Shown here: piece after piece, positions 6,194-50,446 of the stretch
How the letters are laid out: each line of letters begins with the position of its first letter
How positions within the stretch are numbered: position 1 is the first letter of the stretch
IMG/VR virus record: IMGVR_UViG_3300009149_000037
Coordinates: 1-58,560 of that record
Strand: one strand, 5' to 3'
From: a virus
Length of the DNA: 58,560 bases
Translations under genes and position numbers: made by a program
Notes under the pieces: model-generated
Seen by the model: the letters and a program-made list of their open reading frames with translations, nothing else
What the model was told of the DNA's origin: nothing
The model's database searches: none

Positions 6194-6222
6194 TAACAAT
6201 TGCATAATTGACTAGAGCCAAT

Positions 6223-9060
6223 GTGCCAAAGGTTATTGAATTTCGACCATTCTACATTGGGAATAAAGCAGGCTCACGTTCTGAGTTTGTCTTTGAGCCT
6301 AAACTGAAAGAATGGATTGGACCAGATTCAAGCCTCATTAGACAAAATGGCTGGCATCTTTCTCAAGGTGATTCAGCGATTCCTTGCGAGCATACAGGCA
6401 CGGGAGCAAAGTGCGGCGAATGGGATTTTCCAGAACTATTACTTCCACCCGAAGATATCGTTAAAGGTAAACGCAAAACAGCAAGAAACCGCTCAAGACA
6501 ATCTACAACTAAACGAACCAAAGCCAGAGTTCACTCAAGAAAAGTTATTGTTCCGGGAGTAGGTTCCTGCATGGTGGAACTTATTTCAAACTTCTTTTCT
6601 ATCAAAGATTCCAGCGGCTGCAACTGTAAAGCCTACGCTTCCAAAATGGATAAATGGGGGCCAGAAGGTTGCGAACTTCATCGAGAAGAAATCATCAATC
6701 ATCTAGCCAAGAATACAGAAATTCTTCGGAAGGGAATTCAAGACCTCAACATTCCTGGTTGCGGCTTACTTTCAAAACTCGCCGGCACTTCCGCTGCAAT
6801 TCCTCTTCTCAAGATTGGAGCGAATTGGTTACTCACTAAAGCAATCTCCAGTCACAAATCGAAGAAAGAAGCAGCGACAAAGGTTGGTCCCAAAGATGCG
6901 ATCAAATGGATTGAACCAAATCCTTTGAACCTGACTCGGAATCTTGCAATTCATGTCTTCCCGGTCATTGGCAAATGGGAATGGCTCATTGAAGCTCTTA
7001 AAGACAAGACTCATCTTTTCAATGGTCGTAAGCTTGTCTCAATCGTCACTTCTAAAGGCGATTCTGTACGCTTCAAAAACCGAACGATCAGACTTCAAAA
7101 TCCTGAAACAGTCGCTGCTCAATTTCGAGAACTTGGCTTTGAGGTTTCTCTCAGGGAAAACTCGGTGAGGACGGGTGAGTTTGTTTCGTTTGCTCCAATG
7201 GTCAAAGAGCTTTACTCAACTGACCCTTCCCAAGTCACTTTGTACTTACACAGCAAAGGTTCAAAGCATCCAGACAATGAATTTCGATCTATTACAAAAT
7301 GGAATGAAACGATGTTGTCTGTCTTGCTTGATATTGAATCGGTCACAGCGAGTTTCAGCAGAGGCAATGATTTAGTTGGAGCGTTGGGTGGAGATGTTTT
7401 TGGTGATGGCAATGTTCCAATGGGGTCATTCTACTGGTTTAGAAATTCGACTGGTGAAGCAACAGTCACTCCTCACAAGAATCCTTTCTTCACTTCAGAG
7501 AGTTGGCCATCCAAGATATTCAATCAAGAGTATCTCTTAGGTGCAGTCGATGGAAGCAGACCATTCAAGCAACTCTATACAGCAAACTTCTGGGATAATG
7601 GTGAAGGTTCTGACAGACTCAAGAGATTCAATTCTCAAAGAGTCCATAGTATCGAAGAACCAAAAATCACTTTGATTACTCCAACAGGCGATCGACCAGA
7701 AGCTTTCAGACTCTGCGAGAAATGGATATCTCAACAAACTCTAAAACCTTTTGAGTGGATCGTCATTGACGATGGCGAAGTTCCTACTCAAATCACTCAA
7801 GGTCAAAACTACATCAGGCGACAAGGTAGAAAGAGTTCAGAACATACTCTTCCAGACCAGATGCTTGAAGCTCTCAAGTATGTGACTGGAGATTTTGTAA
7901 TCATGATCGAAGACGATGACTACTATCATCCAGAGTATCTTCAATTGATGGTTCAACAATTACAAACAGCGGAGCTTGTCGGAGAAGTTGGCGCTCGATA
8001 CTACTACCTTCCAACTGCAACTTTCAGACACTACACAGAACACACTCATAGCAGTTTCTGCCGAACAGGTTTCAGAAAGAATGTCATCCCACTGCTTTCA
8101 GAAATCTGTAAGGCTTCAAACGAGTCTTTGGATATCAATCTTTGGGAACAATGGACTGGAACCAAACAGCAGCAGTGGAAATCTACGACGATTGGTTGCA
8201 TTGGTATCAAAGGAATGCCTGGTCGAAAATCCCATAATAAGATCAGACCAGAAATTGATGATCACAATCTCAAGACGCTGAAGCAATGGTGTCCCGATTG
8301 GAATGACTACTTACCCTTCTTGAAACCTATCAAAAATCGAGTGGAAGAGACGGGAACACTCTTCAGTATTCTTCTCAGGGAGTATGACCGATTCAGGCCA
8401 GTCTCTGCTGACTCAAGATTTGATCGTCAACTATTAACTGATTCCAAAGAAGTCAAAGTTCAAGGATGGAATATCAATCCAGTCAAACACACTCCAAGTG
8501 ATCCTAAGCAATCAAGACATTTGAAGATTCTTGCTACTCAATCTTTTCCAGATGCTGATTGGATTCTTTATCATGATGCTCAACTTCAATTGAAGTGTAG
8601 TCCCTCATTCTGGTTTGATTGGGTACGTTCTCAAGGTGAAGCAGACATTTACTTTTATCATCATCATCAAAGGCATTGTGTCTACAAAGAAGCTAAAGAG
8701 GTGATGAAGATTCGAAAAGATAAGCCTCAAAATGTTCAACCTCAAATTGCTCGATACGCAAGCCAGAAGATTCCTGAAAACCTTGGATTGTATCTCGGTG
8801 GATTACACATTCGACGAAATACAGAAGCTGTAAAAGCCTTCGAAGAAATCTGGTGGCGTGAAGTTAAACGCGGTTCAGTCAGAGACCAGATTTCTTTGCC
8901 CGTCGCTCTTAGAGAAAGTGGCGTCAAGTTTTTAGCTTTACCGCCAATGTCATGGACTCAACATTTTCAAAGATATACTCACCTCACGAATACTCCAGTC
9001 ATTGAAAATATGTCGGCGAATGATATTCGTGTCTGGGAAAACTTTAAGAAAACGAAGTAA
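6223..9060 (+). CDS. Multidomain glycosyltransferase (GT2-type plus TOD1/DUF616-like domain)
   Basis: About 945 residues. Residues 1-110 are an unrecognised module; about 115-170 hold a small cysteine cluster (CNCKAYASKMDKWGPEGC). A first glycosyltransferase-like region lies near 235-400 (LYLHSKGSKH). A clear GT-A domain follows near 480-640 (ITLITPTGDRPEAFRLCEKW, then FVIMIEDDDYYHPEY with the metal-binding aspartates). A third domain near 705-900 (LLREYDRFRPV, ADWILYHDAQ) resembles TOD1/DUF616 transferases. The GTG at 6223 lies four bases after GACTAGAGC, a variant of the phage leader, so I prefer it to the TTG at 6208. It probably builds or alters a surface glycan, on the host or on the virion. 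Confidence 0.75.
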   Translation: MPKVIEFRPFYIGNKAGSRSEFVFEPKLKEWIGPDSSLIRQNGWHLSQGDSAIPCEHTGTGAKCGEWDFPELLLPPEDIVKGKRKTARNRSRQSTTKRTKARVHSRKVIVPGVGSCMVELISNFFSIKDSSGCNCKAYASKMDKWGPEGCELHREEIINHLAKNTEILRKGIQDLNIPGCGLLSKLAGTSAAIPLLKIGANWLLTKAISSHKSKKEAATKVGPKDAIKWIEPNPLNLTRNLAIHVFPVIGKWEWLIEALKDKTHLFNGRKLVSIVTSKGDSVRFKNRTIRLQNPETVAAQFRELGFEVSLRENSVRTGEFVSFAPMVKELYSTDPSQVTLYLHSKGSKHPDNEFRSITKWNETMLSVLLDIESVTASFSRGNDLVGALGGDVFGDGNVPMGSFYWFRNSTGEATVTPHKNPFFTSESWPSKIFNQEYLLGAVDGSRPFKQLYTANFWDNGEGSDRLKRFNSQRVHSIEEPKITLITPTGDRPEAFRLCEKWISQQTLKPFEWIVIDDGEVPTQITQGQNYIRRQGRKSSEHTLPDQMLEALKYVTGDFVIMIEDDDYYHPEYLQLMVQQLQTAELVGEVGARYYYLPTATFRHYTEHTHSSFCRTGFRKNVIPLLSEICKASNESLDINLWEQWTGTKQQQWKSTTIGCIGIKGMPGRKSHNKIRPEIDDHNLKTLKQWCPDWNDYLPFLKPIKNRVEETGTLFSILLREYDRFRPVSADSRFDRQLLTDSKEVKVQGWNINPVKHTPSDPKQSRHLKILATQSFPDADWILYHDAQLQLKCSPSFWFDWVRSQGEADIYFYHHHQRHCVYKEAKEVMKIRKDKPQNVQPQIARYASQKIPENLGLYLGGLHIRRNTEAVKAFEEIWWREVKRGSVRDQISLPVALRESGVKFLALPPMSWTQHFQRYTHLTNTPVIENMSANDIRVWENFKKTK

Positions 9061-27862: not shown

Positions 27863-28038
27863 GGCAAGGTGGCGAAATGGTAGATGCTGATGACATAGAA
27901 GACTTATGAAGGTGTGCTATGTCCCCGAGAACAGTGAATAAACGCGAGTGACAAGAGGGTCTGGAAGGTCACTGGTTTTGATCCAGCAGCACTGTCGCGA
28001 ATTAGTAAGTCATGCAGGTTCGAATCCTGCCCTTGCCA
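27863..28038 (+). tRNA. tRNA-like gene with about 100 extra bases, anticodon unresolved
   Basis: GGCAAGG (27863-27869) pairs perfectly with CCTTGCC (28031-28037). A tRNA D arm of leucine type follows (GGCGAAATGGTAGATGC) and a canonical T arm precedes the 3' end (GCAGG-TTCGAAT-CCTGC). The spacing is 176 bases, not about 75-90. Inside are further stems: GACATAG/CTATGTC (27890-27933 region), GTGAC/GTCAC, ACAGTG/CACTGT, and a CTGG-TTTTGAT-CCAG hairpin whose loop equals a tRNA-Gln(UUG) anticodon loop. No single cloverleaf fits. It is either an interrupted tRNA or a larger structured RNA with tRNA ends. Confidence 0.55.
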
Positions 28039-30281: not shown

Positions 30282-30354
30282 GGTCCTGTAGTTCAATTGG
30301 GAGAACAGCGGGGTGCATCCCGGACGAATGCTGGTTCGAATCCAGCCAGGACCA
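30282..30354 (+). tRNA. tRNA, anticodon probably GCA (Cys), imperfect anticodon stem
   Basis: Acceptor GGTCCTG/CAGGACC, D arm GTTC-AATTGGGA-GAAC, variable loop CGAAT and T arm GCTGG-TTCGAAT-CCAGC are all standard. With T33 at 30314 the anticodon is GCA. The anticodon stem, however, has two mismatches (G29:G41 and G27:A43). An alternative four-pair stem with a six-base loop would not give a normal tRNA. No CCA is encoded beyond the discriminator A. Confidence 0.65.
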
Positions 30355-32072: not shown

Positions 32073-34082
32073 ATGATTTCATGTGACACGGAAACGACAG
32101 GGCTGGATTTCAAACATGGAACAAAACCTTTTCTAGTTACGATCTGCGATGAGAAACAAAATAATACATGGTGGGAGTGGGATGTTGATCCTTTAACAAG
32201 ACAACCTCAAATCCCGGAAAAAGATATTTCGCAGATTCGAAAGAAGCTCTATCAACAAGAATTGGTATTCCATAATCCGAAATTTGATTTCAGAGCGTTG
32301 GATACTATTTCTTCTGATTGGCCTGATAGAGATTGGAATTTAGTTGATGACACTCTGACTGCTTCACATTTACTTGCTTCCAATCAGCCTCCTGACTTAA
32401 CCAACTTGAGCATGATTTATCTTGGGGTGAATATCAAACCTTATGAAGATGCAGTTCAAGAAGCTTCGAATCAAGCTAGACGAATTGCCCGAAGTAAATT
32501 TCCAGAATGGAAAATTGCTAAAAAAGGAATGAAGGAACTTCCATCTTCTACGGGAGACCTCTGGGCCAACGATATGTGGCTTCCAAGAGCCATTGCAATG
32601 GAGTTGAATTATCCGGGAGATCATCCCTGGTGGACTGTTACTTCTGACTACGCAAATGTTGATACTGCTTCAACGATGCTTCTACATCAAGTTTTTGTAG
32701 AGCAACTTGAAGAAGAAGGATTGACGGAAATCTACAAAGAGCGATTGAAGTTACTTCCAATCATTTATGATATGGAAAGTAAAGGCATTTCACTGAGCAA
32801 AAAACGGCTGGAAGAACTCTACACTCAATACAAAGAAGAGTTTGATGCTTACAGCAAAACTTGTTTGAAGATTTCAGAGAAGGCTGGTTGTGAATTGGTA
32901 TTACCAAAAGGAGCTTCACCAACCAAGACCCTCAAAGAATTCTGCTTCACAGAACCGAAAGGTTTGAAGCTACCAGTTTTGAAGACAACAGATACTGGTC
33001 AACCCTCAATGGACAAAGAGACCAAAGCTTTGTATCTGTTGACGCTGCCTGAGAAATCCAAGCAATACAAGTTCATGCGAGCGTTGGATTCCAGAGCATC
33101 TCTTGCTACCTCAATCAACTACATGGACAGCTACAGAAAGTTCATGGTTGATGGTAGACTCTATTCTTCGATCAATCCGACTGGTACAACTACGCTGAGG
33201 ATGAGCAGTAACAATCCAAACCAACAGCAGATCAGTAAGAGGATTGATAAGCATGGAAGGAATCTGAGATATCTGTTTGGTCCAGAAAAAGGCAAGGTTT
33301 GGGTCTCAATTGACTACGACAATCTGGAGTTGAGAATTCCAGCTTATGAGTGTCGAGAGATTGCAATGCTCGACCTCTTTGAGAATCCAGATAAGGCTCC
33401 ATTTTTTGGTTCTTACCATTTGCTGATTGCTTCGATAATTCATCCCAAAGAGTGGAAAGTTTGCTTGAAAGAAGCTGGTCCTCAATACGTTGCTGAACTC
33501 TTGAAGAAGAAATTCAAGGATACTCTGTACCAATGGACGAAGAATGGAAACTTCGCTGAAATGTATGGAGCAGTTGATACTCACGACGGTCAAGGAACGG
33601 CTGATAAAGCTTTTCATGTGCCTGGTGCTCAAGAGATAATCTCTAAGAAGCTGACCAGGAAAAACGCTCTCAATAGTCAGTACATCAAATTCGCAAACGA
33701 ACACGGATATGTTGAGACGCTGCCAGACACTGAGGTTTCTGAGCGAGGATATCCGTTATACTGCTCACGAACCAATAGAGGCTACGTGAAGCCCACGATA
33801 CCACTCAATTACCACGTACAAGGAACAGCTTGTTGGATTATGATGCGAGCGATGGTTAAGGTTCAAAACTACTTCAACACTTTGCCTGATTCTATTGGAG
33901 CTAGAATCGTAATGAATGTTCATGATGAATTGGTGCTAGAGTTTTCTTCAGGGAGTAACTGGAAACCAAAAGTAAGAAGGGTAAGGACTTTGATGGAGTC
34001 TATTGGTAAAGTTCTTCAACCTCAAATCAAACTTACTTGTGGCGTAGACATTCACACTAACAATTGGAGTCAATCAGCATGA
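32073..34082 (+). CDS. Family A (Pol I/T7-like) DNA polymerase
   Basis: A 669-residue replicative polymerase. The 3'-5' exonuclease domain opens with SCDTETTGLDF and continues with LVFHNPKFDFRAL and the later aspartate region (DYANVDT). Polymerase motifs: SSINPTGTTTLRMSSNNPN, motif A WVSIDYDNLELRIPAY, motif B around WTKNGNFAEMYGA, and motif C MNVHDELVLEF. The start comes right after the GC-rich gene, and its stop overlaps the first gene of the hypermodification cassette (ATGA). It would have to copy 5-hydroxymethyluracil-containing template. Confidence 0.92.
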   Translation: MISCDTETTGLDFKHGTKPFLVTICDEKQNNTWWEWDVDPLTRQPQIPEKDISQIRKKLYQQELVFHNPKFDFRALDTISSDWPDRDWNLVDDTLTASHLLASNQPPDLTNLSMIYLGVNIKPYEDAVQEASNQARRIARSKFPEWKIAKKGMKELPSSTGDLWANDMWLPRAIAMELNYPGDHPWWTVTSDYANVDTASTMLLHQVFVEQLEEEGLTEIYKERLKLLPIIYDMESKGISLSKKRLEELYTQYKEEFDAYSKTCLKISEKAGCELVLPKGASPTKTLKEFCFTEPKGLKLPVLKTTDTGQPSMDKETKALYLLTLPEKSKQYKFMRALDSRASLATSINYMDSYRKFMVDGRLYSSINPTGTTTLRMSSNNPNQQQISKRIDKHGRNLRYLFGPEKGKVWVSIDYDNLELRIPAYECREIAMLDLFENPDKAPFFGSYHLLIASIIHPKEWKVCLKEAGPQYVAELLKKKFKDTLYQWTKNGNFAEMYGAVDTHDGQGTADKAFHVPGAQEIISKKLTRKNALNSQYIKFANEHGYVETLPDTEVSERGYPLYCSRTNRGYVKPTIPLNYHVQGTACWIMMRAMVKVQNYFNTLPDSIGARIVMNVHDELVLEFSSGSNWKPKVRRVRTLMESIGKVLQPQIKLTCGVDIHTNNWSQSA

Positions 34083-34924
34083 AAATTTCTGATGTTAAAA
34101 AGTTGACTACACAAAAGAGATTTTTGTATTGGATTAAAGAACGGGAATCTATCAGAAAAAAGAAAGAGGCAAAAAAGTCTAAGCCATGGACTGATGATGA
34201 AATTTTTGTAACATACAAATTCTGTAATGTTAGAAGAATGGATGATAGAGTTAGCCAATGGCTTCTCAAAAACTGGTTCATTCCTTATTATGATCACCCA
34301 AACATGTTAACTGCTTGTACACTAGCAAGGGAAATTAACAACACTGATTCTTTAGAAGAAATTGGATTTCCTAATTCTTGGCGTCCAAAAAGAGTTCAAA
34401 AAATTCTTGAATCAAGAGTTGAAAGAGGGTTGAAAGTTTTTTCTGGAGCCTATATGATTACAGGCACTCTTGGAGGAACAAAAATAGAACAAGTTGTCAA
34501 TAAAGTTGTTACCCCTATTCACAAAAGTAAAATAAAATTGAACAAAAATTCAATGCAAGAATCTTGTACAATGTTGTTACCTTTTGCGGGGTTTAGCCAT
34601 TTCATTTCTGGGCAAGTAATTGCAGACATGAGACAATCTTCAGAAGGCCATTGGTCTGATGCTAAAGAATGGGCTCCTATGGGTCCTGGTTCTAAGAGAG
34701 GGATGAATCGTTTGTTAGGGAATGATAAAGACAAACCAATGAAACAAGATGTATTTCTTGGTTTTCTAAAAGATGTAATTGAATTGGTTGAAAAAAATCT
34801 TCCGGAAATTGCTTTAAGACTTGAAGCAATTGATGTACAAAACTGTCTTTGCGAGTTTGATAAGTACAGCCGAACAATATTTGGTGAAGGTCGTCCAAAA
34901 TCTAAATATCCAGGAGGTGTCTAA
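34079..34924 (+). CDS. aGPT-Pplase2/HMUDK-helical family protein (thymine hypermodification)
   Basis: A 281-residue protein. FLYWIKERESIRKKKE then PWTDDEIFVTYKFCNVRR and MDDRVSQWLLKNW match the alpha-glutamyl/putrescinyl thymine pyrophosphorylase clade 2 family, known from phages with hypermodified thymine. In that family's proposed role the pyrophosphorylated 5-hydroxymethyluracil in DNA is processed or displaced. The start (34079) overlaps the polymerase stop; the kinase gene follows two bases after its own stop. DNA is more AT-rich than most of the genome. Confidence 0.8.
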   Translation: MKISDVKKLTTQKRFLYWIKERESIRKKKEAKKSKPWTDDEIFVTYKFCNVRRMDDRVSQWLLKNWFIPYYDHPNMLTACTLAREINNTDSLEEIGFPNSWRPKRVQKILESRVERGLKVFSGAYMITGTLGGTKIEQVVNKVVTPIHKSKIKLNKNSMQESCTMLLPFAGFSHFISGQVIADMRQSSEGHWSDAKEWAPMGPGSKRGMNRLLGNDKDKPMKQDVFLGFLKDVIELVEKNLPEIALRLEAIDVQNCLCEFDKYSRTIFGEGRPKSKYPGGV

Positions 34925-34925
34925 C

Positions 34926-35501
34926 ATGATAGTTAGTCTGAGAGGGACACATGGTAGTGGAAAATCAACTGCTGTAAGAAGGTTTCTTTCCAGATATCCA
35001 GGATACGAATCAATTCCTGGAAAGAAACATCCAGAAGGATATAGAGTTACTATATCAGAACTTTCAAAACCTCTTTATATTGTTGGTCATTATGAGACAC
35101 CTTGTGGTGGGTGTGACAGCATTCAACCCTATAGTTTGATTTGGCCAAGAGTTGTTTCTTATGCTGAAAAAGGACATGTACTTTTTGAAGGTGCTCTTGT
35201 TAGTAGTAGCTATGGTAACATTGGAAGAGCCAGTGAAGTTTATGGTGATGAAGTGGTATTTGCTTTCATGGACACACCCTTAGAGAAATGTATAGAAAGA
35301 ATCAAAAAACGAAGAGAACAATCAGGTAAGTCTTACACCAAACCATTCAACCCAGCTAACACAATTTCAAAAGCTAAAAATGTAACAAGGAGCATTGAAG
35401 TCATAACAAAAATTGGTCGTAGAGTTGTAATTGTTAATCACAAAAAAGCAACAAACATAATTCTTAGATTGTTTAAGGAGTTTGACAATGTTGAAAACTA
35501 A
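34926..35501 (+). CDS. 5-hydroxymethyluracil DNA kinase (P-loop)
   Basis: A 191-residue P-loop kinase. IVSLRGTHGSGKSTAVRRFL is the Walker A (residues 7-15 GTHGSGKST), and EGALVSSSYGN plus VVFAFMDTPLEKCIERI follow the layout of hmU DNA kinases. Established family activity is phosphorylation of 5-hydroxymethyluracil within DNA, activating it for substitution. The start is ATG 34926; the ORF running back to 34821 is not supported. The last 14 bases overlap the following gene. Confidence 0.82.
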   Translation: MIVSLRGTHGSGKSTAVRRFLSRYPGYESIPGKKHPEGYRVTISELSKPLYIVGHYETPCGGCDSIQPYSLIWPRVVSYAEKGHVLFEGALVSSSYGNIGRASEVYGDEVVFAFMDTPLEKCIERIKKRREQSGKSYTKPFNPANTISKAKNVTRSIEVITKIGRRVVIVNHKKATNIILRLFKEFDNVEN

Positions 35502-36660
35502 AGACTGGAGATTACCAGAAAACAGGATAGAAGCTTTTACAAGAGTTGTTCATAGTAGGATGGTTGAAGGGGATTTAGATCATCATCATTCTGCACAAGT
35601 TATATCTTCTGAGATGTCTTTATCAGATGATGACAAGCTTCTATATGCATTGTTGTTTGGCCAAAGCTATAGAAATCATTGGGCTATGCTATCTTTACAA
35701 TTATGGCCTGATCTTCTTTCTAGAAAACATTCAGAGCTTGTAAAATGGCACAACAAAAATTACAAGAGATTGGTATTTGCCAAAGATACAAAATGGAATT
35801 TAAGGAAGTGGCCTGATTTTGTTGAATGTATCCGAAAGAAGTACAAAGGTGTTTCTCTGTGTGAGCATTTTGGAAACTTGTGCAGTAGCGATTCTGCCAA
35901 GGTAAACTATGACAGAGTCAATAAAGAGTTGAGATCAATCTGGTCAATTGGTAGAATGTGTGCCTGGCTTGCACAACAAACTATGTATGAGTTGTTTGAT
36001 TGGAATTTAGATCATTGGGATCAACAGTTGTATGACTCAGGAACCTGGTCACAGTATGATTCTTTGTGTTATTTGTTTGATAGAATAGACTTGGCCAGGA
36101 CTCAGATAGTTTCTGGAAAAAGAGTAAAAAGAAAACCTTCTAGAGAAGACATATCTTTGATGGAAGTCAACACCCAAAAATTGATGGGAATCTTGAACAA
36201 AAGAATACCATTTCATGTTGATATCTATAATGTTGAAAGTGCTGAATGTGAATACAGAAAAACTGCCTATGGACCTAATAGAATAAAGGAGTTCACTTTC
36301 TGGACTACAAATGAATTGGTAGAAGAATATCAACACTTGAAATCTTTGTGGAATCCTGAAGAACAATCTGGAAAAATAACTTGGAATCCTTACATGATTG
36401 CACTAATGACTAAGGGAAAAAATGTTAGAGATTATGGTTGGCATCCAGATTACTTCAGGGTTCTCTATGATTATGGAATGAATTTGAATACACATTACAT
36501 TTATAAGGATGAACCTGATGCACATGAGGTCTTAAGCTTACCAAAGAATATTTCAGACTCTTTCAGGATTCTCAAACGTGAATGGTTAGATATTTCTAAG
36601 TCCGAAAGATTAAACCTTAGAAAAATGTACAACCCCAAAAACTTTTTAAGGAGTAACTGA
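35488..36660 (+). CDS. Amino acid:DNA transferase-like (AADT) protein
   Basis: A 390-residue protein. The block LLYALLFGQSYRNHWAMLSL, then LRSIWSIGRMCAWLAQQTMY and SQYDSLCYLFDRID, follows the layout I recall for AADT proteins of hypermodified-thymine phages (GR-x2-AW, then a D/G..SxxxxLC segment). AADTs are proposed to attach an amino acid or amine to activated hmU in DNA. The assignment rests on pattern and on the neighbours (kinase and pyrophosphorylase-family gene). The end overlaps the FkbM ATG by one base. Confidence 0.65.
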   Translation: MLKTKDWRLPENRIEAFTRVVHSRMVEGDLDHHHSAQVISSEMSLSDDDKLLYALLFGQSYRNHWAMLSLQLWPDLLSRKHSELVKWHNKNYKRLVFAKDTKWNLRKWPDFVECIRKKYKGVSLCEHFGNLCSSDSAKVNYDRVNKELRSIWSIGRMCAWLAQQTMYELFDWNLDHWDQQLYDSGTWSQYDSLCYLFDRIDLARTQIVSGKRVKRKPSREDISLMEVNTQKLMGILNKRIPFHVDIYNVESAECEYRKTAYGPNRIKEFTFWTTNELVEEYQHLKSLWNPEEQSGKITWNPYMIALMTKGKNVRDYGWHPDYFRVLYDYGMNLNTHYIYKDEPDAHEVLSLPKNISDSFRILKREWLDISKSERLNLRKMYNPKNFLRSN

Positions 36661-37418
36661 TGTCCAAAGTTAAAAATGCAACTGATTCAAGTTATGAAAT
36701 GAAAGAAGAAGGAAAATTCAAATGTTACATTAGGGAAAATTCTTCCGATGCTGTAGTCTTTAAAGATAACCTTCAAAAATGTCCTATTGAAAAGCACATT
36801 GAAGTAAATGAGAATCAGAAATGGGTTGACTTAGGTGGATACATTGGTACATTTGCAATGTTTCTCAGGTCTAGAGGTGTTGTTCCAACTTTTTCTGTAG
36901 AAGCTGATCCAGACAATGCTGAAATGTATGTAAAGAATATGGATCTCAATGGGATTAAGGATTACAAGCTTTTAAACAAAGCAGTGTTTCTAAATCCTCA
37001 AAAACCTGTAATGACTCTTTACAAGGGGAGCAAAGGAAGTAGAAAGAATCATGCAGCAAATACGTTTTTCTCTAGATGGAAAACTGAAAGGGACACATTA
37101 GAAATTCCAACAATTTCGTTTGATAAGGTTATGAAACAAGCGATCAAATATCTAGGAAAAGGAGGTGAATGGAATTTGAAGCTTGATATTGAAGGTGCTG
37201 AAATTGATATTCTTGAACGTGCTGATTTATCAATGTTTAACAACTTTTTCTTTGAGTATCATTTTCAAGCCGATAAATCTGTGAAACGAGCAAAAAGAAT
37301 ATTCAAGATGTTCAGATCAAAAGGATACACAGTAAAGACTAGTATCTCCCTTCCAAAAACTGCCGAACCTGAATACTGGACTCAAGAAGTGTTCATTGCT
37401 TGGATTTTCAAATCTTAG
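36660..37418 (+). CDS. FkbM-family methyltransferase in the hypermodification cassette
   Basis: A 252-residue class I methyltransferase. SAM-binding loop WVDLGGYIGTFAMFL, acidic strand FSVEADPDNAEMY, and the FkbM signature LKLDIEGAEIDILERAD. It differs from the FkbM gene at 12308, which sits in the glycan cluster. Placed one base from the AADT-like gene, it probably methylates the group added to DNA or its precursor, though a glycan substrate cannot be excluded. Confidence 0.78.
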   Translation: MSKVKNATDSSYEMKEEGKFKCYIRENSSDAVVFKDNLQKCPIEKHIEVNENQKWVDLGGYIGTFAMFLRSRGVVPTFSVEADPDNAEMYVKNMDLNGIKDYKLLNKAVFLNPQKPVMTLYKGSKGSRKNHAANTFFSRWKTERDTLEIPTISFDKVMKQAIKYLGKGGEWNLKLDIEGAEIDILERADLSMFNNFFFEYHFQADKSVKRAKRIFKMFRSKGYTVKTSISLPKTAEPEYWTQEVFIAWIFKS

Positions 37419-37431
37419 AAAGAAGTTAAAA

Positions 37432-38586
37432 ATGTCAAACCCTATTCGTGTTGCTGTAATTGGAGTGGGCAATTGTGCTAAGTCACTTATCTGTGGTGTT
37501 GCTTCTTACAAAGAAACAAAATCCACACAAGGACTTGCTTTTGCAAAAATTGGAGGTTACAAACCAGGAGATATTGAATTTGTGGCAGCCTATGATGTAG
37601 ACACAAGAAAAGTTGGTAGGCCCCTTAAAAAAGCAATTTATGGATTGCCAAATTGTTCTGACGATTTCGATGTTAATCAAGAAGAATTGAGTTCAATTTG
37701 TTCTGGAACAATTGTTAAGAAAGGAGCGGTATATGATGGGGTTGCTTCTCACATGTTAATTGCTCCAGAAGATGAAGGATTCAGAATAACAAAAGATCCA
37801 GAACCTTCTTTAGAAGATGTTGTTCAAGAACTCAAAAACTCCAAGGTAGATATCTTATTGAACTATCTTCCTGTTGGGTCTGAAGTAGCAACAAGATTCT
37901 ATGTTGAAGCTTGCTTGAAGGCAAAAGTTCCTTTTGTGAATTGTATTCCTGTGTTCATTGTTTCCGATCCTTTCTGGGAAGAAAAATTAAAGGAAAGAGG
38001 TATCCCTGCAATTGGAGATGACATGAGGTCACAGTTGGGTGCTTCAGTAGTATCACAGGCTCTTCAGGAATTGTTTTTCAACAGAGGAATGAATATACAA
38101 TTCCACTGTCAAACGAATCATGGAGGAAATACAGATTTCTTGAATATGGTAGATCAAACTCGTCTAGCTTCTAAGAAGATTTCAAAAGAAAATGTCATTC
38201 GGTCTCAAAATGACCTGAGAGGAATTCCTGTTCCAAAGAACGGAATTTATGCTGGTCCATCTTCGTACATTGCCCATCATGGGGACAATAAAATCGCTCA
38301 CTTCAGAATAGAAGCTACTGGTTTTGGAGGGGCAAAAGTTGAATTTGATGCTAAGCTCTCTGTACAAGACTCACCTAACTCTGCAGGAGTCGTGATTGAC
38401 GCTATAAGGTATCTACAGGTCGCTAAAGAAATGGGCCTCACTGGGTCTCTCAGAGGTCCTAGTGCAGCCACTCAAAAAACTCCCCCAGAACAGATGATGA
38501 TACAGGACGCTCACGAGGAATGTAAGACTCTTGCTGAGAGAAAACTTACTTCTTCCCTCTTACAACACAATAAGGTGTCTAAATGA
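37432..38586 (+). CDS. Myo-inositol-1-phosphate synthase
   Basis: A 384-residue enzyme matching MIPS over its length: Rossmann start VAVIGVGNCAKSLICGVAS, the AAYDVD strand, DILLNYLPVGSE, GDDMRSQLGASVV, and the active-site block CQTNHGGNTDFLNM, followed by FDAKLSVQDSPNSAGV. MIPS converts glucose-6-phosphate to inositol phosphate with NAD. Such genes occur in some phages. Here it is between an FkbM methyltransferase and a HAD-like gene within the DNA-modification operon, so an inositol-type or derived group on DNA is a possible outcome. Confidence 0.85.
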   Translation: MSNPIRVAVIGVGNCAKSLICGVASYKETKSTQGLAFAKIGGYKPGDIEFVAAYDVDTRKVGRPLKKAIYGLPNCSDDFDVNQEELSSICSGTIVKKGAVYDGVASHMLIAPEDEGFRITKDPEPSLEDVVQELKNSKVDILLNYLPVGSEVATRFYVEACLKAKVPFVNCIPVFIVSDPFWEEKLKERGIPAIGDDMRSQLGASVVSQALQELFFNRGMNIQFHCQTNHGGNTDFLNMVDQTRLASKKISKENVIRSQNDLRGIPVPKNGIYAGPSSYIAHHGDNKIAHFRIEATGFGGAKVEFDAKLSVQDSPNSAGVVIDAIRYLQVAKEMGLTGSLRGPSAATQKTPPEQMMIQDAHEECKTLAERKLTSSLLQHNKVSK

Positions 38587-38960
38587 TTAATTCCTACGAC
38601 ATAGATGGTGTTATCTACATGGGTCCTGAATACCTCGGAGTGAGTCCAGAGGAAGAAGACGTAATAATTACGGGGAGGTCATTTGAAGAGGCATCTGAGA
38701 CGTCTCAGATGCTTTGTGAGAGAGGCATCAACAACAAGGTACACTATAACCCAAAGCTCTTTAGCAATAAGACTAGAGAATCCTCAGGATTTCACAAAGT
38801 GACAATTTTGAAAAAGTTAATCTCTGAAGGTATGCCTATTGGGATACATTTTGAAGATGATCCAATCCAAGCTGAGATAATACAAAAAAATGTTTCAGGA
38901 CTCCAAGTTGTGTTGTTAGTACATAACCTTGTAGAAAAAGAGAATGTTCGTCATTTATAG
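38583..38960 (+). CDS. HAD-like phosphatase
   Basis: A 125-residue protein. NSYDIDGVIYMGPE is a DxDG-type HAD motif I, DVIITGRSFEEA motif II (ITGR), and IGIHFEDDPIQAEI motif IV. The cap domain is minimal. Overlaps the MIPS gene by four bases, so it is coupled to it; dephosphorylation of inositol phosphate or of a nucleotide intermediate is a natural guess. Last gene of the cassette; a terminator follows. Confidence 0.72.
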   Translation: MINSYDIDGVIYMGPEYLGVSPEEEDVIITGRSFEEASETSQMLCERGINNKVHYNPKLFSNKTRESSGFHKVTILKKLISEGMPIGIHFEDDPIQAEIIQKNVSGLQVVLLVHNLVEKENVRHL

Positions 38961-38965
38961 ATGTG

Positions 38966-39006
38966 AAAAAAGCCTCTCAGATATCTAACTGAGAGGCTTT
39001 TGTTTG
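38966..39006. terminator. Bidirectional terminator
   Basis: AAAAGCCTCTCAG (38968-38980) pairs with CTGAGAGGCTTTT (38989-39001), a 13-bp stem with A-run on one side and T-run on the other. It lies between the rightward hypermodification cassette and the leftward unit ending at 39023, so it can stop both transcripts. Confidence 0.88.
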
Positions 39007-39022
39007 TGGTACGGGAAATTGT

Positions 39023-39430
39023 TCAGTCAAACTTCACAGCAAGACCTTTCTTTGTTAGATAATAACATGTTCCTCTTACTTCTTCAGAAACAATTGATGA
39101 AACAAACCCTTGAACCACAAGATCATATTTCAGATTCAATTGGTTACGTACCAGAGCAAAATCTACTTTACCCTTTTCTGCAATGACAGCAACTGTCGCA
39201 GCAGTCTTGGAAGAAATTGCTCCGGCATTTTTCATTGCTTCGAACAACGCTTTCTTCTTTGGTGACCACTTGATTTTTTTGTTCAATTGGTCAGAAATTT
39301 CTTTTGGTCCCTTAGATTTTTTGACTACAGATTTTGGAGAAGCCTTTTTCGTCGTCTTCTTTTTCTTTGTTGTTTCAATTGCAGTGGTTTTCTTCGTCGT
39401 CTTCTTTTTCTTTGGGGTTGCAGTCGTCAT
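39023..39430 (-). CDS. Lysine-rich, histone-tail-like DNA-binding protein
   Basis: A 135-residue protein. Residues 1-45 are a repeated lysine/threonine/alanine tail (TPKKKKTTKKTTAIETTKKK and then KTTKKASPKSVVKKSK), like a histone H1 or AlgP-type tail. Residues 60-135 are a probable winged-helix (KKALFEAMKNAGAISSKTAA, then LVVQGFVSSIVSEE). The start at 39430 follows TAGACTGGAGACTTGAA. The family could compact DNA, mask promoters, or guard modified DNA. It is in its own leftward unit under promoter D. Confidence 0.65.
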   Translation of the reverse strand: MTTATPKKKKTTKKTTAIETTKKKKTTKKASPKSVVKKSKGPKEISDQLNKKIKWSPKKKALFEAMKNAGAISSKTAATVAVIAEKGKVDFALVRNQLNLKYDLVVQGFVSSIVSEEVRGTCYYLTKKGLAVKFD

Positions 39431-39475
39431 TTCAAGTCTCCAGTCTAAGAACAATGGAAGGCTGCCATCTTCAGG

Positions 39476-39523
39476 CCAGAGGAACCAAACCTCTGACGAC
39501 TCTCTCCCGCCATGAGAGAGTTT
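39476..39523. repeat. Two adjacent hairpins between leftward genes
   Basis: CAGAGG/CCTCTG (in 39478-39498) and CTCTCT/AGAGAG (in about 39502-39523) form two stable hairpins between the 57-residue gene and the lysine-rich gene. There is no T-run, so they may attenuate transcription or protect mRNA ends. Confidence 0.4.
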
Positions 39524-39528
39524 CGGCT

Positions 39529-39702
39529 TTACTTAACACACTCTACAAGACCAAAAAACCTTTGAACTGTTTCATCAGCAAATTCACAATACGTGTAGGT
39601 CCTAGTCTTGACAACCGATTCAACGCGAGACATTCTGTTCTCGTTGAACACTACGGTATCGCCCACTTGAAGTTCTGAGTAAGTTCGCTTGATTGTTTCC
39701 AT
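39529..39702 (-). CDS. Small SH3-like protein, 57 aa
   Basis: Begins METIKRTYSELQVGDTVVFN, a small beta barrel typical of SH3/KOW-like phage proteins (GDTVVFNENRM...). The ATG at 39702 follows AAACTGGAGCACTAAA; the frame back to 39756 has no leader. First gene behind promoter D. Confidence 0.55.
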   Translation of the reverse strand: METIKRTYSELQVGDTVVFNENRMSRVESVVKTRTYTYCEFADETVQRFFGLVECVK

Positions 39703-39735
39703 TTTAGTGCTCCAGTTTTCGTTTCGGGTTTCGGT

Positions 39736-39741
39736 TATAAT
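39736..39741 (+). promoter_or_regulatory. Rightward -10 element upstream of the thymidylate synthase-like gene
   Basis: TATAAT within GGTTATAATTCGTC resembles the cores at 22842 and 25673 (GTTATAATNCG). It lies about 110 bases before 39850, in the divergent region shared with leftward promoter D. The -35 side is not clear. Confidence 0.4.
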
Positions 39742-39761
39742 TCGTCTCTCCAACAAAAGCA

Positions 39762-39791
39762 GTTATCGTCACTCTTGGACGAAAAGTAAAG
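39762..39791 (-). promoter_or_regulatory. Leftward promoter D
   Basis: CTTTAC (complement of 39786-39791) and GATAAC (complement of 39762-39767) with an 18-base spacer, exactly the family of promoters A and B, but without the AATAGT boxes. It serves 39702 down to 39023, ending at the bidirectional terminator. Confidence 0.55.
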
Positions 39792-39849
39792 TTCAAATGA
39801 TAAAAATCTTCAAAGAAAATCTAAAGTTTTCAAAACTACAGGAAATCCA

Positions 39850-41001
39850 ATGCATTTAAAGACAAAAAACGTCAACACCGCGTTCGCTGATCTGGTCAAA
39901 TCCTTCTGCGATTCCGAAGAGGTTGAAGAGACGGAGACCAGAAATGGCAAAGTCAAAGTCTTCTCAGAGCCTGTCACGATTACGTTTGAGAATCCTACAG
40001 AACGGGTTCTCTTCAATCGAGCAAGAGACGCCAATCCATTCTTCCACGTCTTTGAATCTCTATGGATGCTCGCTGGCAGAAATGATTTGAAACCTCTACT
40101 GAAATACGTTTCGACCTTTGGAGATTTCAGCGATGACGGCGAGACTCTCAATGGAGCCTATGGTTATCGTTGGAGACAAGCTAATGCTTCGGAAAATCAT
40201 CCTGAAGGAAGTTGGCAGGGAGACCAATTGAATATACTTGTAAGCCATCTTAAGAAGAATCCAACAAGTCGCAGAGCAGTTCTGCAAATGTGGAATGTAG
40301 AAGACGATCTGTTGAATGTTGATTCTTCAAAAGACGTTTGTTGTAATCTCTCTGCTTGCTTTTCAATTAGAGTTACAGGAGAAGTTTGCTCCAGATGCGG
40401 TAAAGAAACAGACCCAGAGCTTGGAATACCAAATCACACAAGTACTTGTAATCTTTCAAAAGGAAAACCTGTAAAGACTCCAATCAAATACTTAGACATG
40501 ACTGTTTTCAACCGCAGTAATGATATGGTCTGGGGAACTTGCGGAGCCAACGCTGTTCACTTTTCTTTTCTCCAGGAGTATATGGCCAAGCGTCTTGGAG
40601 TTAGAGTTGGTAAGTATCATCAAGTTTCTAACAACCTTCACGTCTATACTGAAACAAATTCTGGTTGGACTCCAGATAAGTGGTTAGATTATGCTGACGA
40701 ATACTCTTATGAGCAAGACGTTAAAATACAAGTTCCTCTGGTAGATGACCCTGAGACCTTTGATAGAGAAGTTCAGAAGTTCATTGACTACGGCGACTCA
40801 AGTAGAAGTTGGAAAGAACCTTTCCTTCATAAAGTAGCTGCTCCTATGGTCTGGGCCTTTGAACATCATAAAAGACGATCTTACAGTGACGCTTTAACAG
40901 CTTGTATCGTTATCAAAGATGACGCTTGGAGACTCGCTGCAACCAATTGGATTTTGAAACGACAAGAAAATTGGAAAAAGAAAAATGAAAGTAACAGTTG
41001 A
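39850..41001 (+). CDS. Thymidylate synthase-family enzyme, candidate dUMP hydroxymethylase
   Basis: A 383-residue member of the ThyA/hydroxymethylase superfamily. NGAYGYRWRQ, the catalytic-cysteine region SSKDVCCNLSACFSIRV, FNRSNDMVWGTCGANAVHFS and KYHQVSNNLHVY are aligned with ThyA blocks. The asparagine in GANAVHFS is the residue that selects dUMP in ThyA; dCMP hydroxymethylases have Asp there. With an hmU DNA kinase downstream in the pathway, a dUMP hydroxymethylase is the favoured role; ordinary dTMP synthesis remains possible. A zinc-like insertion (CSRCGKETD...CNLSK) lies near 185-205. Confidence 0.78.
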   Translation: MHLKTKNVNTAFADLVKSFCDSEEVEETETRNGKVKVFSEPVTITFENPTERVLFNRARDANPFFHVFESLWMLAGRNDLKPLLKYVSTFGDFSDDGETLNGAYGYRWRQANASENHPEGSWQGDQLNILVSHLKKNPTSRRAVLQMWNVEDDLLNVDSSKDVCCNLSACFSIRVTGEVCSRCGKETDPELGIPNHTSTCNLSKGKPVKTPIKYLDMTVFNRSNDMVWGTCGANAVHFSFLQEYMAKRLGVRVGKYHQVSNNLHVYTETNSGWTPDKWLDYADEYSYEQDVKIQVPLVDDPETFDREVQKFIDYGDSSRSWKEPFLHKVAAPMVWAFEHHKRRSYSDALTACIVIKDDAWRLAATNWILKRQENWKKKNESNS

Positions 41002-46489: not shown

Positions 46490-46544
46490 TTGTATATAAG
46501 AGTGTAGGTGGAGTTAATTAAGAAATTTTGAATGTGGAAAATTG

Positions 46545-47135
46545 ATGACAAAAAGAACAAGAGGAGTCAAACAAAGAGCAAAAATGGTTCATAAAAATGC
46601 GATGACAAAGCATTTGACGGAGAACCAAAAAAGGTTTTGTGAAGAGTTAGTAGCCTCAACTTCATTCAGTCCAAAAGAAGCGGCAGAGAAAGCAGGATAC
46701 AAACAAGGAGCAGTCGCGGGAGCGAAGATACTCAAGAATCCTTATGCCAATGCTTACATCTCAGACCTCATCCGTATTAGATCAGAAAAGACTGAACTCA
46801 AAGCAGAGACCGTATTAAAGGAACTAATGCACTGCTGCTTGAGAGACCCAATTGGCCTGGTAGATGAAGAAGGTTACTTCCATACTAATCTTCATGACAT
46901 ACCTGAAGAATTGAGACGAGCAATTGATGGTATCAAGGTCAAGCAGACCAGGGATGAAGAAGGAAACATGACACAAACTCTTGAGATAAAATTTGTTTCA
47001 AAAGCAAGTATGATAGAGCTTGCTATGAAGCATTTAGGCTTACTCGATGCCGATGGAAACGGTGAAGAACAATTGAAACGATTGGATTGGGATAAACTCT
47101 TAGAAGGAGAACCAAACAATGTCATTGAAATCTAA
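46545..47135 (+). CDS. terS: Terminase small subunit
   Basis: A 196-residue protein. LTENQKRFCEELVASTSFSP then KEAAEKAGYKQGAVAGAKIL and KNPYANAYISDLI is the Terminase_2 (Nu1-like) DNA-binding signature. The C-terminal part is the oligomer arm. ATG at 46545; the TTG at 46542 is a weaker choice. Recognises the packaging site and loads the large subunit, which lies 1.8 kb downstream after four inserted genes. An AT-rich stretch at 46490-46540 may hold a late promoter. Confidence 0.82.
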   Translation: MTKRTRGVKQRAKMVHKNAMTKHLTENQKRFCEELVASTSFSPKEAAEKAGYKQGAVAGAKILKNPYANAYISDLIRIRSEKTELKAETVLKELMHCCLRDPIGLVDEEGYFHTNLHDIPEELRRAIDGIKVKQTRDEEGNMTQTLEIKFVSKASMIELAMKHLGLLDADGNGEEQLKRLDWDKLLEGEPNNVIEI

Positions 47136-47466
47136 ACTGCCCAAATTGACTCTTGACGTTCTATTGAAGTTTGCAGAAGAACATTCAAAAGACAAATTTG
47201 ATATTAACCATAGTAAAACCTGACTGGCCGTTCAATGTGCTGCCCAGTTAGGGTACACCGACCCAGGTATGGGTGGATATTCTACACTCCAATACCAAGA
47301 TGGGTTTAACGATTGGAAAGAGCGTTCCATTGATGAAGTCTACGCCAAATGGTGTGAAGATACAGTCAAATTGAGAGGAACTAACAAATCACAAGTCTGG
47401 ATGACTGGAGCAAAAATAGTTACTTCAATCAAGGAATACGTTAAGGATCACAATCATGAAGGTTGA
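47119..47466 (+). pseudogene. Gene interrupted by an in-frame TGA (or recoded)
   Basis: A single frame runs from ATG 47119 to the stop at 47466, broken only by TGA at 47221-47223. Before it: MSLKSKLPKLTLDVLLKFAE and DINHSKT. After it: LAVQCAAQLGYTDPGMGGYS, DWKERSIDEVYAKW and TSIKEYVKD. The coding quality continues unchanged across the stop (LAVQCAAQLGYTDPG is not restarted by any ATG until 47269). It is either a nonsense mutation, with possible restart at ATG 47269, or readthrough. The family is one of packaging-region accessory proteins I cannot name. Confidence 0.6.
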
Positions 47467-47995
47467 AAAAGAGAACAAATTCCTTTTCAAAGAAACTCTG
47501 GCACTACTCAAACCAGAATCAACGATCGTAGAACTTGGAACAATTCGAGACAGCAATCCCAAAGCAGAATTCACAGATGGCTGGAGCACTCTTCAATGGT
47601 ATCTTGCAGGACACGAAGTACATTCAATTGACACAGACTTTAGAGCACTCAAAATATGTGAGTTGACATTGAGACTTGAGACAACTCCTCGAACAAAACT
47701 CCCAGTGTTTCCTTATTTGGTTCACTGCAATGCTTTAGCTTTTCTCAGGGAAATGTGGCCTAAGTTAGACGCTCCAATTGATCTTCTCTACATTGATGCT
47801 CCAATAGGTCAGGAAGCTGCTGATTGTTTCATGCTCGCTGATAAATGGATTCAAGAAGGTGGCTTAGTTCTCGTAGATGATATTGAAGAGAACCACACTC
47901 AAAGAAAAGAGTTGTTACTGCCTGCAATCCTTGAAGCTGGATACGTTGAACTACATAACAATGGCAGACAATCACTACTTCAAAAACAAGGCTGA
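47456..47995 (+). CDS. Class I SAM-methyltransferase-like protein
   Basis: A 179-residue Rossmann protein. TIVELGTIRDSNP is motif I, HEVHSIDTDF the acidic strand, LLYIDAPIGQEAADCFMLAD and GGLVLVDDIEEN are motifs IV-VI. No catalytic signature for DNA methylation (no DPPY or IPC) is seen. It may act on a small molecule or glycan. It sits with a LicD-like gene between the two terminase genes, an unusual place. Confidence 0.6.
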   Translation: MKVEKENKFLFKETLALLKPESTIVELGTIRDSNPKAEFTDGWSTLQWYLAGHEVHSIDTDFRALKICELTLRLETTPRTKLPVFPYLVHCNALAFLREMWPKLDAPIDLLYIDAPIGQEAADCFMLADKWIQEGGLVLVDDIEENHTQRKELLLPAILEAGYVELHNNGRQSLLQKQG

Positions 47996-47998
47996 GGT

Positions 47999-48625
47999 AT
48001 GAAACTATTTGATAGAGAAGTTGCTCGACAGACTCTGATTGATGTGTATCCAATCTTGAGTCCCTACTTTGCTTTGGCTCATGGAACAGTCTTAGGAGCT
48101 TACAGAGACAAAGATTTCACTCCAACAGAAGTAGATATTGATTTGCTAACAACGGTCGAAGTGATGGCAGAAAATGCTGAACTACTTCTTATAGCTTTGG
48201 AGCGTGAAGGATTTGTCAGTAGGGTAATTGAGAAACCCAATGGGGCTATCAGAGCGTTTTCAGTAAAGAGAAACGGTATCAAGATTGATTGTGCCGGATA
48301 CACGAAACATATTTTGAAGAGCAGCCAGGAATACAACACGTCTCTACACTCACTGATCAATTCTCGACCTAGATGTCTTTCGGCTTATAGAGAAGTAGGC
48401 TACTCAACTTCAACGCTTAAGGATTTTTCGATCGTTCATCCTTATTCCTTTTTCCTCAGGGAGAATATGGAGACGATTGATTTTCAGGGATTACCTTGGA
48501 AGATTCCTTCCCCAATTGAAGAGTATCTTGAAAGGGAGTATGGATCAGAATGGGAGACACCAATTCGTACTCACATGCAACAATCACGTATCTATCACTT
48601 TGAAACTCTGGAAGGAATATCATGA
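47999..48625 (+). CDS. LicD-like nucleotidyl/phosphocholine transferase
   Basis: A 208-residue protein. FALAHGTVLGAYRDKDFTPT followed by EVDIDLLTTV is the LicD/fukutin nucleotidyltransferase-like motif (GxxLGxxR...DxDiD). The rest (YGSEWETPIRTH) ends as LicD proteins do (Y...W..P). LicD proteins add phosphorylcholine or phospho-sugars to surface glycans. Overlap and direction suggest it is co-expressed with the packaging genes. Its substrate is unknown. Confidence 0.68.
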   Translation: MKLFDREVARQTLIDVYPILSPYFALAHGTVLGAYRDKDFTPTEVDIDLLTTVEVMAENAELLLIALEREGFVSRVIEKPNGAIRAFSVKRNGIKIDCAGYTKHILKSSQEYNTSLHSLINSRPRCLSAYREVGYSTSTLKDFSIVHPYSFFLRENMETIDFQGLPWKIPSPIEEYLEREYGSEWETPIRTHMQQSRIYHFETLEGIS

Positions 48626-48897
48626 AAACAAGGCGATCTAATATAGAACTTGAACTAATAGGTAAGCTTTGTTGCAAACTTCTAAGGTCAAGAGTGAATC
48701 CAGAAAAAGGTTATTGTGAATTCTTTTTTCTAAAGGATCATTGCTGCGACATGCAAGGAGCAATCAATCTGGCAAAATACCTTATGGGAGAGTCTCTGAG
48801 ATACATTAGAACGTATTCTGGAGAAGATTTAGATACTTCCTACATTTGTCTAGGAGATGACTCTTGGGTAGCACACAACAGGAAATTTGATGAGTGA
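48622..48897 (+). CDS. Hypothetical protein, 91 aa
   Basis: Begins MKTRRSNIELELIGKLCCKL, with a KDHCCDMQGA loop and an acidic end (HNRKFDE). Cysteine pairs (CC twice) are not spaced as a known zinc site. Overlaps the previous and next genes; nothing more can be said. Confidence 0.5.
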   Translation: MKTRRSNIELELIGKLCCKLLRSRVNPEKGYCEFFFLKDHCCDMQGAINLAKYLMGESLRYIRTYSGEDLDTSYICLGDDSWVAHNRKFDE

Positions 48898-50446
48898 GCT
48901 TGCATTGGACCCTGTAGGATTTGTGGCTAGGGTTTGGCCTAAAGTCATTCTGTATGACAAGCAGGCTGAGATTATGGAATCGGTAAGGGACAACGATGAC
49001 ACGATCGTTATTGCAGGGAACCAACTTGGCAAAGACTTTATCTCAGGTCTTATTGCTCTATGGTTCTTTTGTTCTAGGCGACCTGCAAGGGTTGTCACCT
49101 CATCTGTTAAATTTGATCAACTCAATGACGTTCTATGGGGTGAAATCAGAAACTTCTTATCAACCTCAGCAATGCCCTTACCAGTTCAAAACAACCACAT
49201 GAAGTTGAGACAAACTTACAATGATGGGCGTATTGTTGATAAATCAGAAATGGTTGGTCAGGTTGTTTCTACAGAGGAAGGTTTGCTGGGTCGTCACTTG
49301 GCAAGAGGTGATAACAATCTTCCAATGACGCTGGTTATCTTCGATGAATGCTCTGGAGTTGATGATGGAGTCTGGGAAAAATGCTCAACATGGTCTCATC
49401 GAAGATTAGCAATTGGAAATCCTTTTGATTGTGAGAACTTCTTCAAGAAAGCGTATGACAAAGGAGATATTCCAAGAGACCCGAAAGACTTGAGCAAAGG
49501 CTACTATCAAAAAGTCATTTACATTAACGCTGAAGATTCTCCAAACGTGAAGCTGGCTCGAAAGCAGATCGCAGAAGGTTTAGAACCTACAAATGAAATC
49601 GTAGTGCCTGGAGTAAAGGACTGGCTGACCTACGTTAAGCAACGGCAACTCTGGGACGTTAAACTAGCTACGATTGGCCTAGATGCTAAATTCTACGAAG
49701 GGGCAGACGTTAGACTCTACCCTCAAGAATGGCTTCAACTTGCTGCGAGACATTCAGAGACTTACAAGATTTCAAGTAACGATACAGCAGAGTCAATTGG
49801 TATTGATGTTGCAGAGGGTGGAGACTCAACGGTTTGGACGGTCATTGATTGGCGAGGAATCCTAGAACAAATTTCTTTGAAGACTGAAGACACTTCGATT
49901 ATTCCAAGCCATACGATTGCTCTTGGACTGAAATGGAATGTGCCGCCTGAAATGTGGTGGTTTGATAGAGGTGGTGGTGGAAAGCAACATGCAGACGTTT
50001 TGAAGCGGCAGGGATATCAAGTCAAAACAGTAGGATTTGGAGAACCTTCATCTGACCCTCATAAGTTCAAAAGAGGTAAAGTCAGTTTTAAGAAAAGAGA
50101 GTCAAGAGAAGACGCAAGGTATGCTTTCAAGAATCGTCGAGCAGAAATGTTTGGATTGATACGATATGAATTTCTTGATCCTTCTGCTGAGAATTATCCT
50201 TTCGGTATTCCCAGACAGCTTTCTGAGTTACACTCTCAACTATCGAAATTCCCTTTGGACTATGAAGAGGGCAAACTTATCCTTCCACCAAAGAACGCAA
50301 TCAGTGACAAGCAGCGAAAAAGGGGCGTGACTAGAACACTTACTCAAATGATTGGTCATAGTCCAGATGAAGCAGACTCCTTAGCATTAGCAATCTACGG
50401 CATGCTAAGGAAAAGACATATCAAAGTTCTTGGAAGAGGAATTTAA
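48890..50446 (+). CDS. terL: Terminase large subunit
   Basis: A 518-residue packaging motor. IVIAGNQLGKDFISGLIALW is the ATPase Walker A variant, MTLVIFDECSGVDDGVWEKC the Walker B with catalytic Glu, and RRLAIGNPFD the coupling motif. The nuclease part has IGIDVAEGGDSTVWTVIDW (first Asp) and ADSLALAIYGM (last Asp). Length is normal. It cuts concatemers and drives DNA into proheads. The ATG at 48890 overlaps the previous stop. Confidence 0.85.
   Translation: MSELALDPVGFVARVWPKVILYDKQAEIMESVRDNDDTIVIAGNQLGKDFISGLIALWFFCSRRPARVVTSSVKFDQLNDVLWGEIRNFLSTSAMPLPVQNNHMKLRQTYNDGRIVDKSEMVGQVVSTEEGLLGRHLARGDNNLPMTLVIFDECSGVDDGVWEKCSTWSHRRLAIGNPFDCENFFKKAYDKGDIPRDPKDLSKGYYQKVIYINAEDSPNVKLARKQIAEGLEPTNEIVVPGVKDWLTYVKQRQLWDVKLATIGLDAKFYEGADVRLYPQEWLQLAARHSETYKISSNDTAESIGIDVAEGGDSTVWTVIDWRGILEQISLKTEDTSIIPSHTIALGLKWNVPPEMWWFDRGGGGKQHADVLKRQGYQVKTVGFGEPSSDPHKFKRGKVSFKKRESREDARYAFKNRRAEMFGLIRYEFLDPSAENYPFGIPRQLSELHSQLSKFPLDYEEGKLILPPKNAISDKQRKRGVTRTLTQMIGHSPDEADSLALAIYGMLRKRHIKVLGRGI

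What the first reader, a model, noticed from the sequence alone, without database searches (positions are those of the whole stretch)
47119..47466. In-frame TGA within a well-formed gene between terS and the methyltransferase gene
The frame continues with coding character on both sides of TGA 47221 (HSKT|LAVQCAAQLG). Nothing before 47269 restarts translation. TGA may be read through (Trp or Cys insertion, or Sec), or the gene is a fresh null. The phage carries unusual tRNA genes, so suppression deserves a look.
Basis: seen in the sequence. Interest (0 to 1): 0.6.

Follow-up and report, generated by a model that had tools for sequence, protein, structure and literature searches.

The report
Isolated stop codon in phage orphan gene
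A small gene of unknown family in an uncultivated tailed virus carries one stop codon in its reading frame; the likeliest reading is an ordinary interrupted gene (a mutation or an assembly error), with two adjacent small genes as the main alternative and no firm evidence that the virus reads the stop as an amino acid.

Summary
TGA 47221-47223 lies in frame between ATG 47119 (good Shine-Dalgarno) and TGA 47464. Codon statistics support coding in that frame on both sides and in no other frame. The ORF is an orphan: no homologue was found in protein-family libraries, PDB sequences, phage and plasmid records, viral and genome contigs, or the relatives fetched here. It lies between terS and terL, a spacing that varies from about 0 to 3.8 kb in relatives, so it is probably dispensable cargo. 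TGA is this virus's commonest stop (25 of 47 genes), which rules out a genome-wide TGA reassignment. The one well-scoring tRNA gene has no UCA anticodon. The only restart, ATG 47269, has a poor ribosome-binding site and sits in a hairpin, so two separate genes are less likely than one interrupted gene, but not excluded. UGA-C context, a very stable hairpin over the stop and a loosely SECIS-like hairpin leave readthrough or selenocysteine open, but each is weak or post hoc and cannot be tested without relatives. Best reading: one roughly 115-codon accessory orphan gene broken by an isolated nonsense codon, real or assembly-borne, giving mainly a 34-residue peptide. Low interest.

The parts
47103..47110 (+). 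Shine-Dalgarno GAAGGAGA before ATG 47119
   Evidence: duplex -8.8 kcal/mol with anti-SD, top 3% of all ATGs in the window
47119..47223 (+). upstream part of the ORF (34 codons + TGA)
   Evidence: coding score +7.6 bits
47221..47223 (+). in-frame TGA, followed by C
47224..47466 (+). downstream open frame (80 codons + stop TGA), same frame
   Evidence: coding score +12.5 bits, other frames negative
47269..47466 (+). 65-codon ORF that would be the second gene if translation restarts
   Evidence: poor SD and low start accessibility (0.16; 24 gene starts checked 0.20-0.72)
47219..47252 (+). hairpin, 9-bp stem CCUGACUGG/CCAGUUAGG, TGA in its 5' arm
   Evidence: -13.9 kcal/mol, among the most stable 0.1% of 34-nt windows; whole-region z only -1.4
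47237..47258 (+). alternative hairpin with bulged C and loop AGUUA, loosely SECIS-like in spacing
   Evidence: -9.4 kcal/mol; 2% of UGAs in the window (6% GC-matched) do as well
47261..47274 (+). small hairpin ACCCA-GGUA-UGGGU burying ATG 47269
46542..47135 (+). terminase small subunit (Terminase_2), overlaps the ORF start by 17 nt
   Evidence: PF03592 4e-18, phrog_51 8e-22
47456..47995 (+). methyltransferase-like protein, overlaps the ORF end by 11 nt
   Evidence: Methyltransf_24 E 3e-5, just under Pfam's cut-off
47999..48625 (+). LicD-like nucleotidyltransferase
   Evidence: PF04991 28.9 bits, cut-off 22.6
48887..50446 (+). terminase large subunit
   Evidence: phrog_2 2.5e-18; relatives up to 54% identical

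Best explanation
An accessory orphan gene of about 115 codons, in the variable cargo site between terS and terL, is interrupted at codon 35 by one isolated nonsense codon: a recent mutation, a minority allele caught by the assembly, or a consensus error. Translation starts at ATG 47119 and mostly ends at UGA 47221, giving a 34-residue peptide; the rest is not made or only at background readthrough. Shown: the frame, coding statistics on both sides, absence of homologues in what was searched, variable terS-terL spacing in relatives, TGA as main stop. Inferred: that the two parts were one protein, that it is dispensable, and the origin of the TGA.
For: Same-frame coding signal on both sides of the TGA, including a weak positive signal in the 45 nt between TGA and the next start. 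Poor start context for the second half: SD-like pairing no better than 35% of all ATGs, ATG inside a hairpin, accessibility 0.16 against 0.20-0.72 at 24 other gene starts. A low-confidence single-sequence AlphaFold2 model of the read-through protein has a helix (residues 30-43) running across codon 35. In 37 relatives with both genes, terS-terL spacing runs from overlapping to 3.8 kb and no relative has this gene, as expected for dispensable cargo. TGA is a normal stop here, 25 of 47 genes. In-frame stops in prokaryotic genes are reported most often in the mobilome/phage category (PMC7918605).
Against: The only sign of decay is one stop; the rest of the frame is intact, so a null would have to be recent. 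Coding score just after the TGA is weak (47224-47343: lowest 5% of real gene segments). Without homologues, unity of the two parts rests on composition only. No reads were available to tell mutation from error.
Confidence: 0.5

Rival explanations
1. Two adjacent small genes: a 34-codon gene 47119-47223 and a 65-codon gene 47269-47466 that happen to share a frame, with a 45-nt intercistronic stretch holding hairpins.
For: Same-frame neighbours are common in this window (stops at 3957, 11973, 12947, 45148 and 46161 are each followed by a start within 3 codons; 25644 has a start 17 codons on). Coding signal just after the TGA is weak and becomes strong only from 47344. Fifteen stop-free codons arise by chance about half the time.
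Against: ATG 47269 has no well-placed SD and is the least accessible start of those checked; the gap itself scores +2.5 bits in frame with the other frames negative.
Confidence: 0.27
2. Functional readthrough: ribosomes partly decode UGA 47221 by near-cognate tRNA, making both a 34-residue and a 115-residue product.
For: UGA followed by C, the rarest following base among this virus's TGA stops (3 of 25) and described as a weaker termination signal, in work on eukaryotic cells (PMC9841425); UGA readthrough by near-cognate tRNAs is known in E. coli (PMC5373646); stable hairpin at the site.
Against: The hairpin's 5' arm contains the UGA itself, so it would be unwound once the stop is in the A site (inference). 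Fold z-scores are ordinary, -1.1 to -1.4. No conservation can be shown. The phage has no UCA-anticodon tRNA.
Confidence: 0.15
3. Selenocysteine insertion at UGA 47221 through a bacterial-type SECIS at 47237-47258.
For: Hairpin with bulge and G-containing loop, loop 22 nt after the UGA.
Against: 2-6% of UGAs in the window do as well; no homologue with Cys at this position, the standard criterion, and single sequences count only as candidates because of possible sequencing error (PMC1088965); no CxxU/UxxC motif; host and its Sec machinery unknown.
Confidence: 0.03
4. Genome-wide use of TGA as a sense codon by the virus.
For: None beyond the single TGA.
Against: TGA ends 25 of 47 genes; no UCA-anticodon tRNA among the tRNA genes found.
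Confidence: 0.01

Closest known systems
Isolated in-frame stops in prokaryotic and phage genes (PMC7918605)
   Same: Single TGA in an otherwise open coding frame, in a mobile-element gene.
   Different: There the stop is recognised against orthologues; here there are none, so selection cannot be measured.
Natural UGA readthrough genes (E. coli nudL and pheL in PMC5373646; phage Q-beta A1, from memory)
   Same: UGA followed in frame by an open coding extension.
   Different: Those extensions are shown experimentally; here there is no protein evidence and no conserved stimulator.
Bacterial selenoprotein genes
   Same: In-frame UGA with a hairpin soon after it.
   Different: No Cys homologue, no redox motif, hairpin not exceptional for this window.

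Membership tests
Bacterial selenoprotein gene | SECIS hairpin just downstream of UGA with G in a small apical loop | tested here: inconclusive
   Loose geometry met at 47237-47258, but 2% of all UGAs (6% GC-matched) do as well
Bacterial selenoprotein gene | Homologues with Cys at the UGA position | tested here: not met
   No homologue in any search; criterion from PMC1088965
Bacterial selenoprotein gene | Host or phage Sec machinery | not testable with these tools
   Host unknown; Sec genes were not searched one by one in the phage; Rfam at gathering cut-offs found no Sec tRNA in the window
Programmed stop-codon readthrough | Stop conserved in relatives with coding constraint on both sides | not testable with these tools
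   No relative carries the gene
Programmed stop-codon readthrough | Leaky context and downstream stimulator | tested here: inconclusive
   UGA-C present; hairpin overlaps the UGA rather than lying downstream
Alternative genetic code (TGA sense) | TGA avoided as terminator, UCA tRNA present | tested here: not met
   TGA ends 25 of 47 genes; no UCA anticodon
Interrupted gene (nonsense mutation or error) | Intact homologue elsewhere | tested here: inconclusive
   No homologue found at all

The most novel reading that the evidence does not exclude
A phage orphan gene whose UGA is decoded on purpose (near-cognate readthrough or selenocysteine), with hairpins over the stop and over the only restart codon ensuring that the second half is made only as a fusion.
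Probability: 0.1. Interest if true: 0.5.

Novelty: new member of a known kind. Interest (0 to 1): 0.17.

Why it matters
If it is only an interrupted cargo gene it matters little beyond careful annotation: a TGA in an orphan of one metagenome-assembled virus should not be taken as recoding. If readthrough were shown, it would be a case of a DNA phage using UGA recoding in a non-structural accessory gene.

Tried and rejected
Searches for homologues of the read-through protein or its 65-residue part: Pfam, PHROGs, NCBIfam, PDB sequences, phages, plasmids, viral contigs and genome contigs, all empty or noise. tblastn and phmmer --max over the fetched loci (about 165) gave nothing. A weak hit in one relative (E 6e-4) lies out of frame inside a helicase-like ORF of L172 and was rejected. 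Foldseek on the AlphaFold2 model (mean pLDDT 55) gave no match below E 0.6. Suppressor tRNA rejected by anticodon. The TerL profile in genome contigs gave only distant hits (24-28% identity) in Clostridia and Nitrospirae MAGs, not enough to name a host.

Full report
What is there. The window is one 58,560-base virus record of IMG/VR. Between terS (46542-47135) and a methyltransferase-like gene (47456-47995) a frame opens at ATG 47119 behind a good Shine-Dalgarno sequence and runs to TGA 47464, broken once by TGA at 47221. The ORF overlaps terS by 17 nt and the next gene by 11 nt, as in a packed operon.

Is it coding? A third-order, three-phase model trained on 47 ORFs of this window (taken as genes) gives +7.6 bits before the TGA and +12.5 bits after it in this frame; both other frames are strongly negative. 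Random stop-free sequences reach these scores in 0.3% and 0.05% of trials. The signal after the TGA is uneven: 47224-47268 +2.5, 47269-47343 -0.8, 47344-47463 +11.1 bits. So both ends are coding, and the middle is only weakly so.

One gene or two? The only in-frame restart is ATG 47269. It lacks a well-placed SD, lies in a small hairpin (ACCCA-GGUA-UGGGU), and is less accessible than the 24 other gene starts checked (0.16 against 0.20-0.72). This favours one gene. Against that, neighbouring genes in the same frame with short gaps are common here, and 15 stop-free codons come by chance half the time. I weigh one interrupted gene at roughly twice the two-gene reading; that weighting is a judgement, not a computed value.

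Does the virus read TGA as sense? TGA ends 25 of 47 genes, so there is no general reassignment. ARAGORN lists two tRNA genes; the one at 27949 scores below Rfam's cut-off and lies within an ORF. The tRNA at 30282-30354 is well supported (50.4 bits), with a 4-bp anticodon stem and a 6-nt loop GUGCAU; it holds no UCA. Relatives carry tRNA-Met(CAU)-like genes of similar sequence, so it is probably an altered member of that type (inference).

Local RNA. A 9-bp hairpin (47219-47252) contains the UGA in its 5' arm; at -13.9 kcal/mol it is among the most stable 0.1% of 34-nt windows, and about seven such sites occur in the window. It was found after the fact, and fold z-scores are only -1.1 to -1.4. 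With the first 15 nt masked, as by a ribosome at the stop, another hairpin forms at 47237-47258 with loop AGUUA; its spacing fits the loose bacterial SECIS range (range taken from general knowledge), but 2% (6% GC-matched) of UGAs here do as well. The accepted test for a selenoprotein, Cys-containing homologues (PMC1088965), is not met.

Relatives. Profiles of portal and TerL brought in many IMG/VR relatives; several share the 43673 gene, terS and terL. In 37 with both terS and terL, their spacing runs from overlapping to 3.8 kb. None holds the ORF, so the question of TGG or two genes could not be answered by comparison. The search tools may withhold records very near the window.

How it most likely works. 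The gene is variable cargo; translation begins at 47119 and mostly ends at 47221. Whether the TGA is a mutation in the virus population or an error of the consensus cannot be told without reads. Function of the intact protein, if one exists, is unknown; the read-through sequence is predicted helical with low confidence.

Verdict. In-frame stops are reported to be most frequent in phage and transposon genes (PMC7918605), so the case is ordinary unless protein data show otherwise.

Noticed in passing
34064-41001: Gene set for hypermodified thymidine in DNA: 5-hmdU DNA kinase helical domain (34064-34924), amino acid:DNA transferase ADDT (35482-36660), inositol-phosphate-synthase-like protein (37396-38586), thymidylate-synthase homologue (39850-41001).
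   Followed up: no
39456-39528 (-): Type II hammerhead ribozyme, 42.7 bits, above Rfam's cut-off.
   Followed up: no
30282-30354 (+): Well-scoring tRNA with a 4-bp anticodon stem and 6-nt loop GUGCAU; ARAGORN cannot assign it. Looks like an altered tRNA-Met(CAU) when set beside relatives.
   Followed up: partly
L180 1501-1572 (-), in the record of L013: A relative carries a tRNA with anticodon CUA that ARAGORN labels tRNA-Pyl: a possible amber-decoding phage of the same group.
   Followed up: no
47119-48897: The terS-terL interval is a variable cargo site in this virus group, from overlapping genes to 3.8 kb; here it holds the orphan, a methyltransferase-like and a LicD-like gene.
   Followed up: partly
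6208-9060: One 950-residue protein with two glycosyltransferase domains (Glycos_transf_2 and TOD1/MUCI70-like).
   Followed up: no
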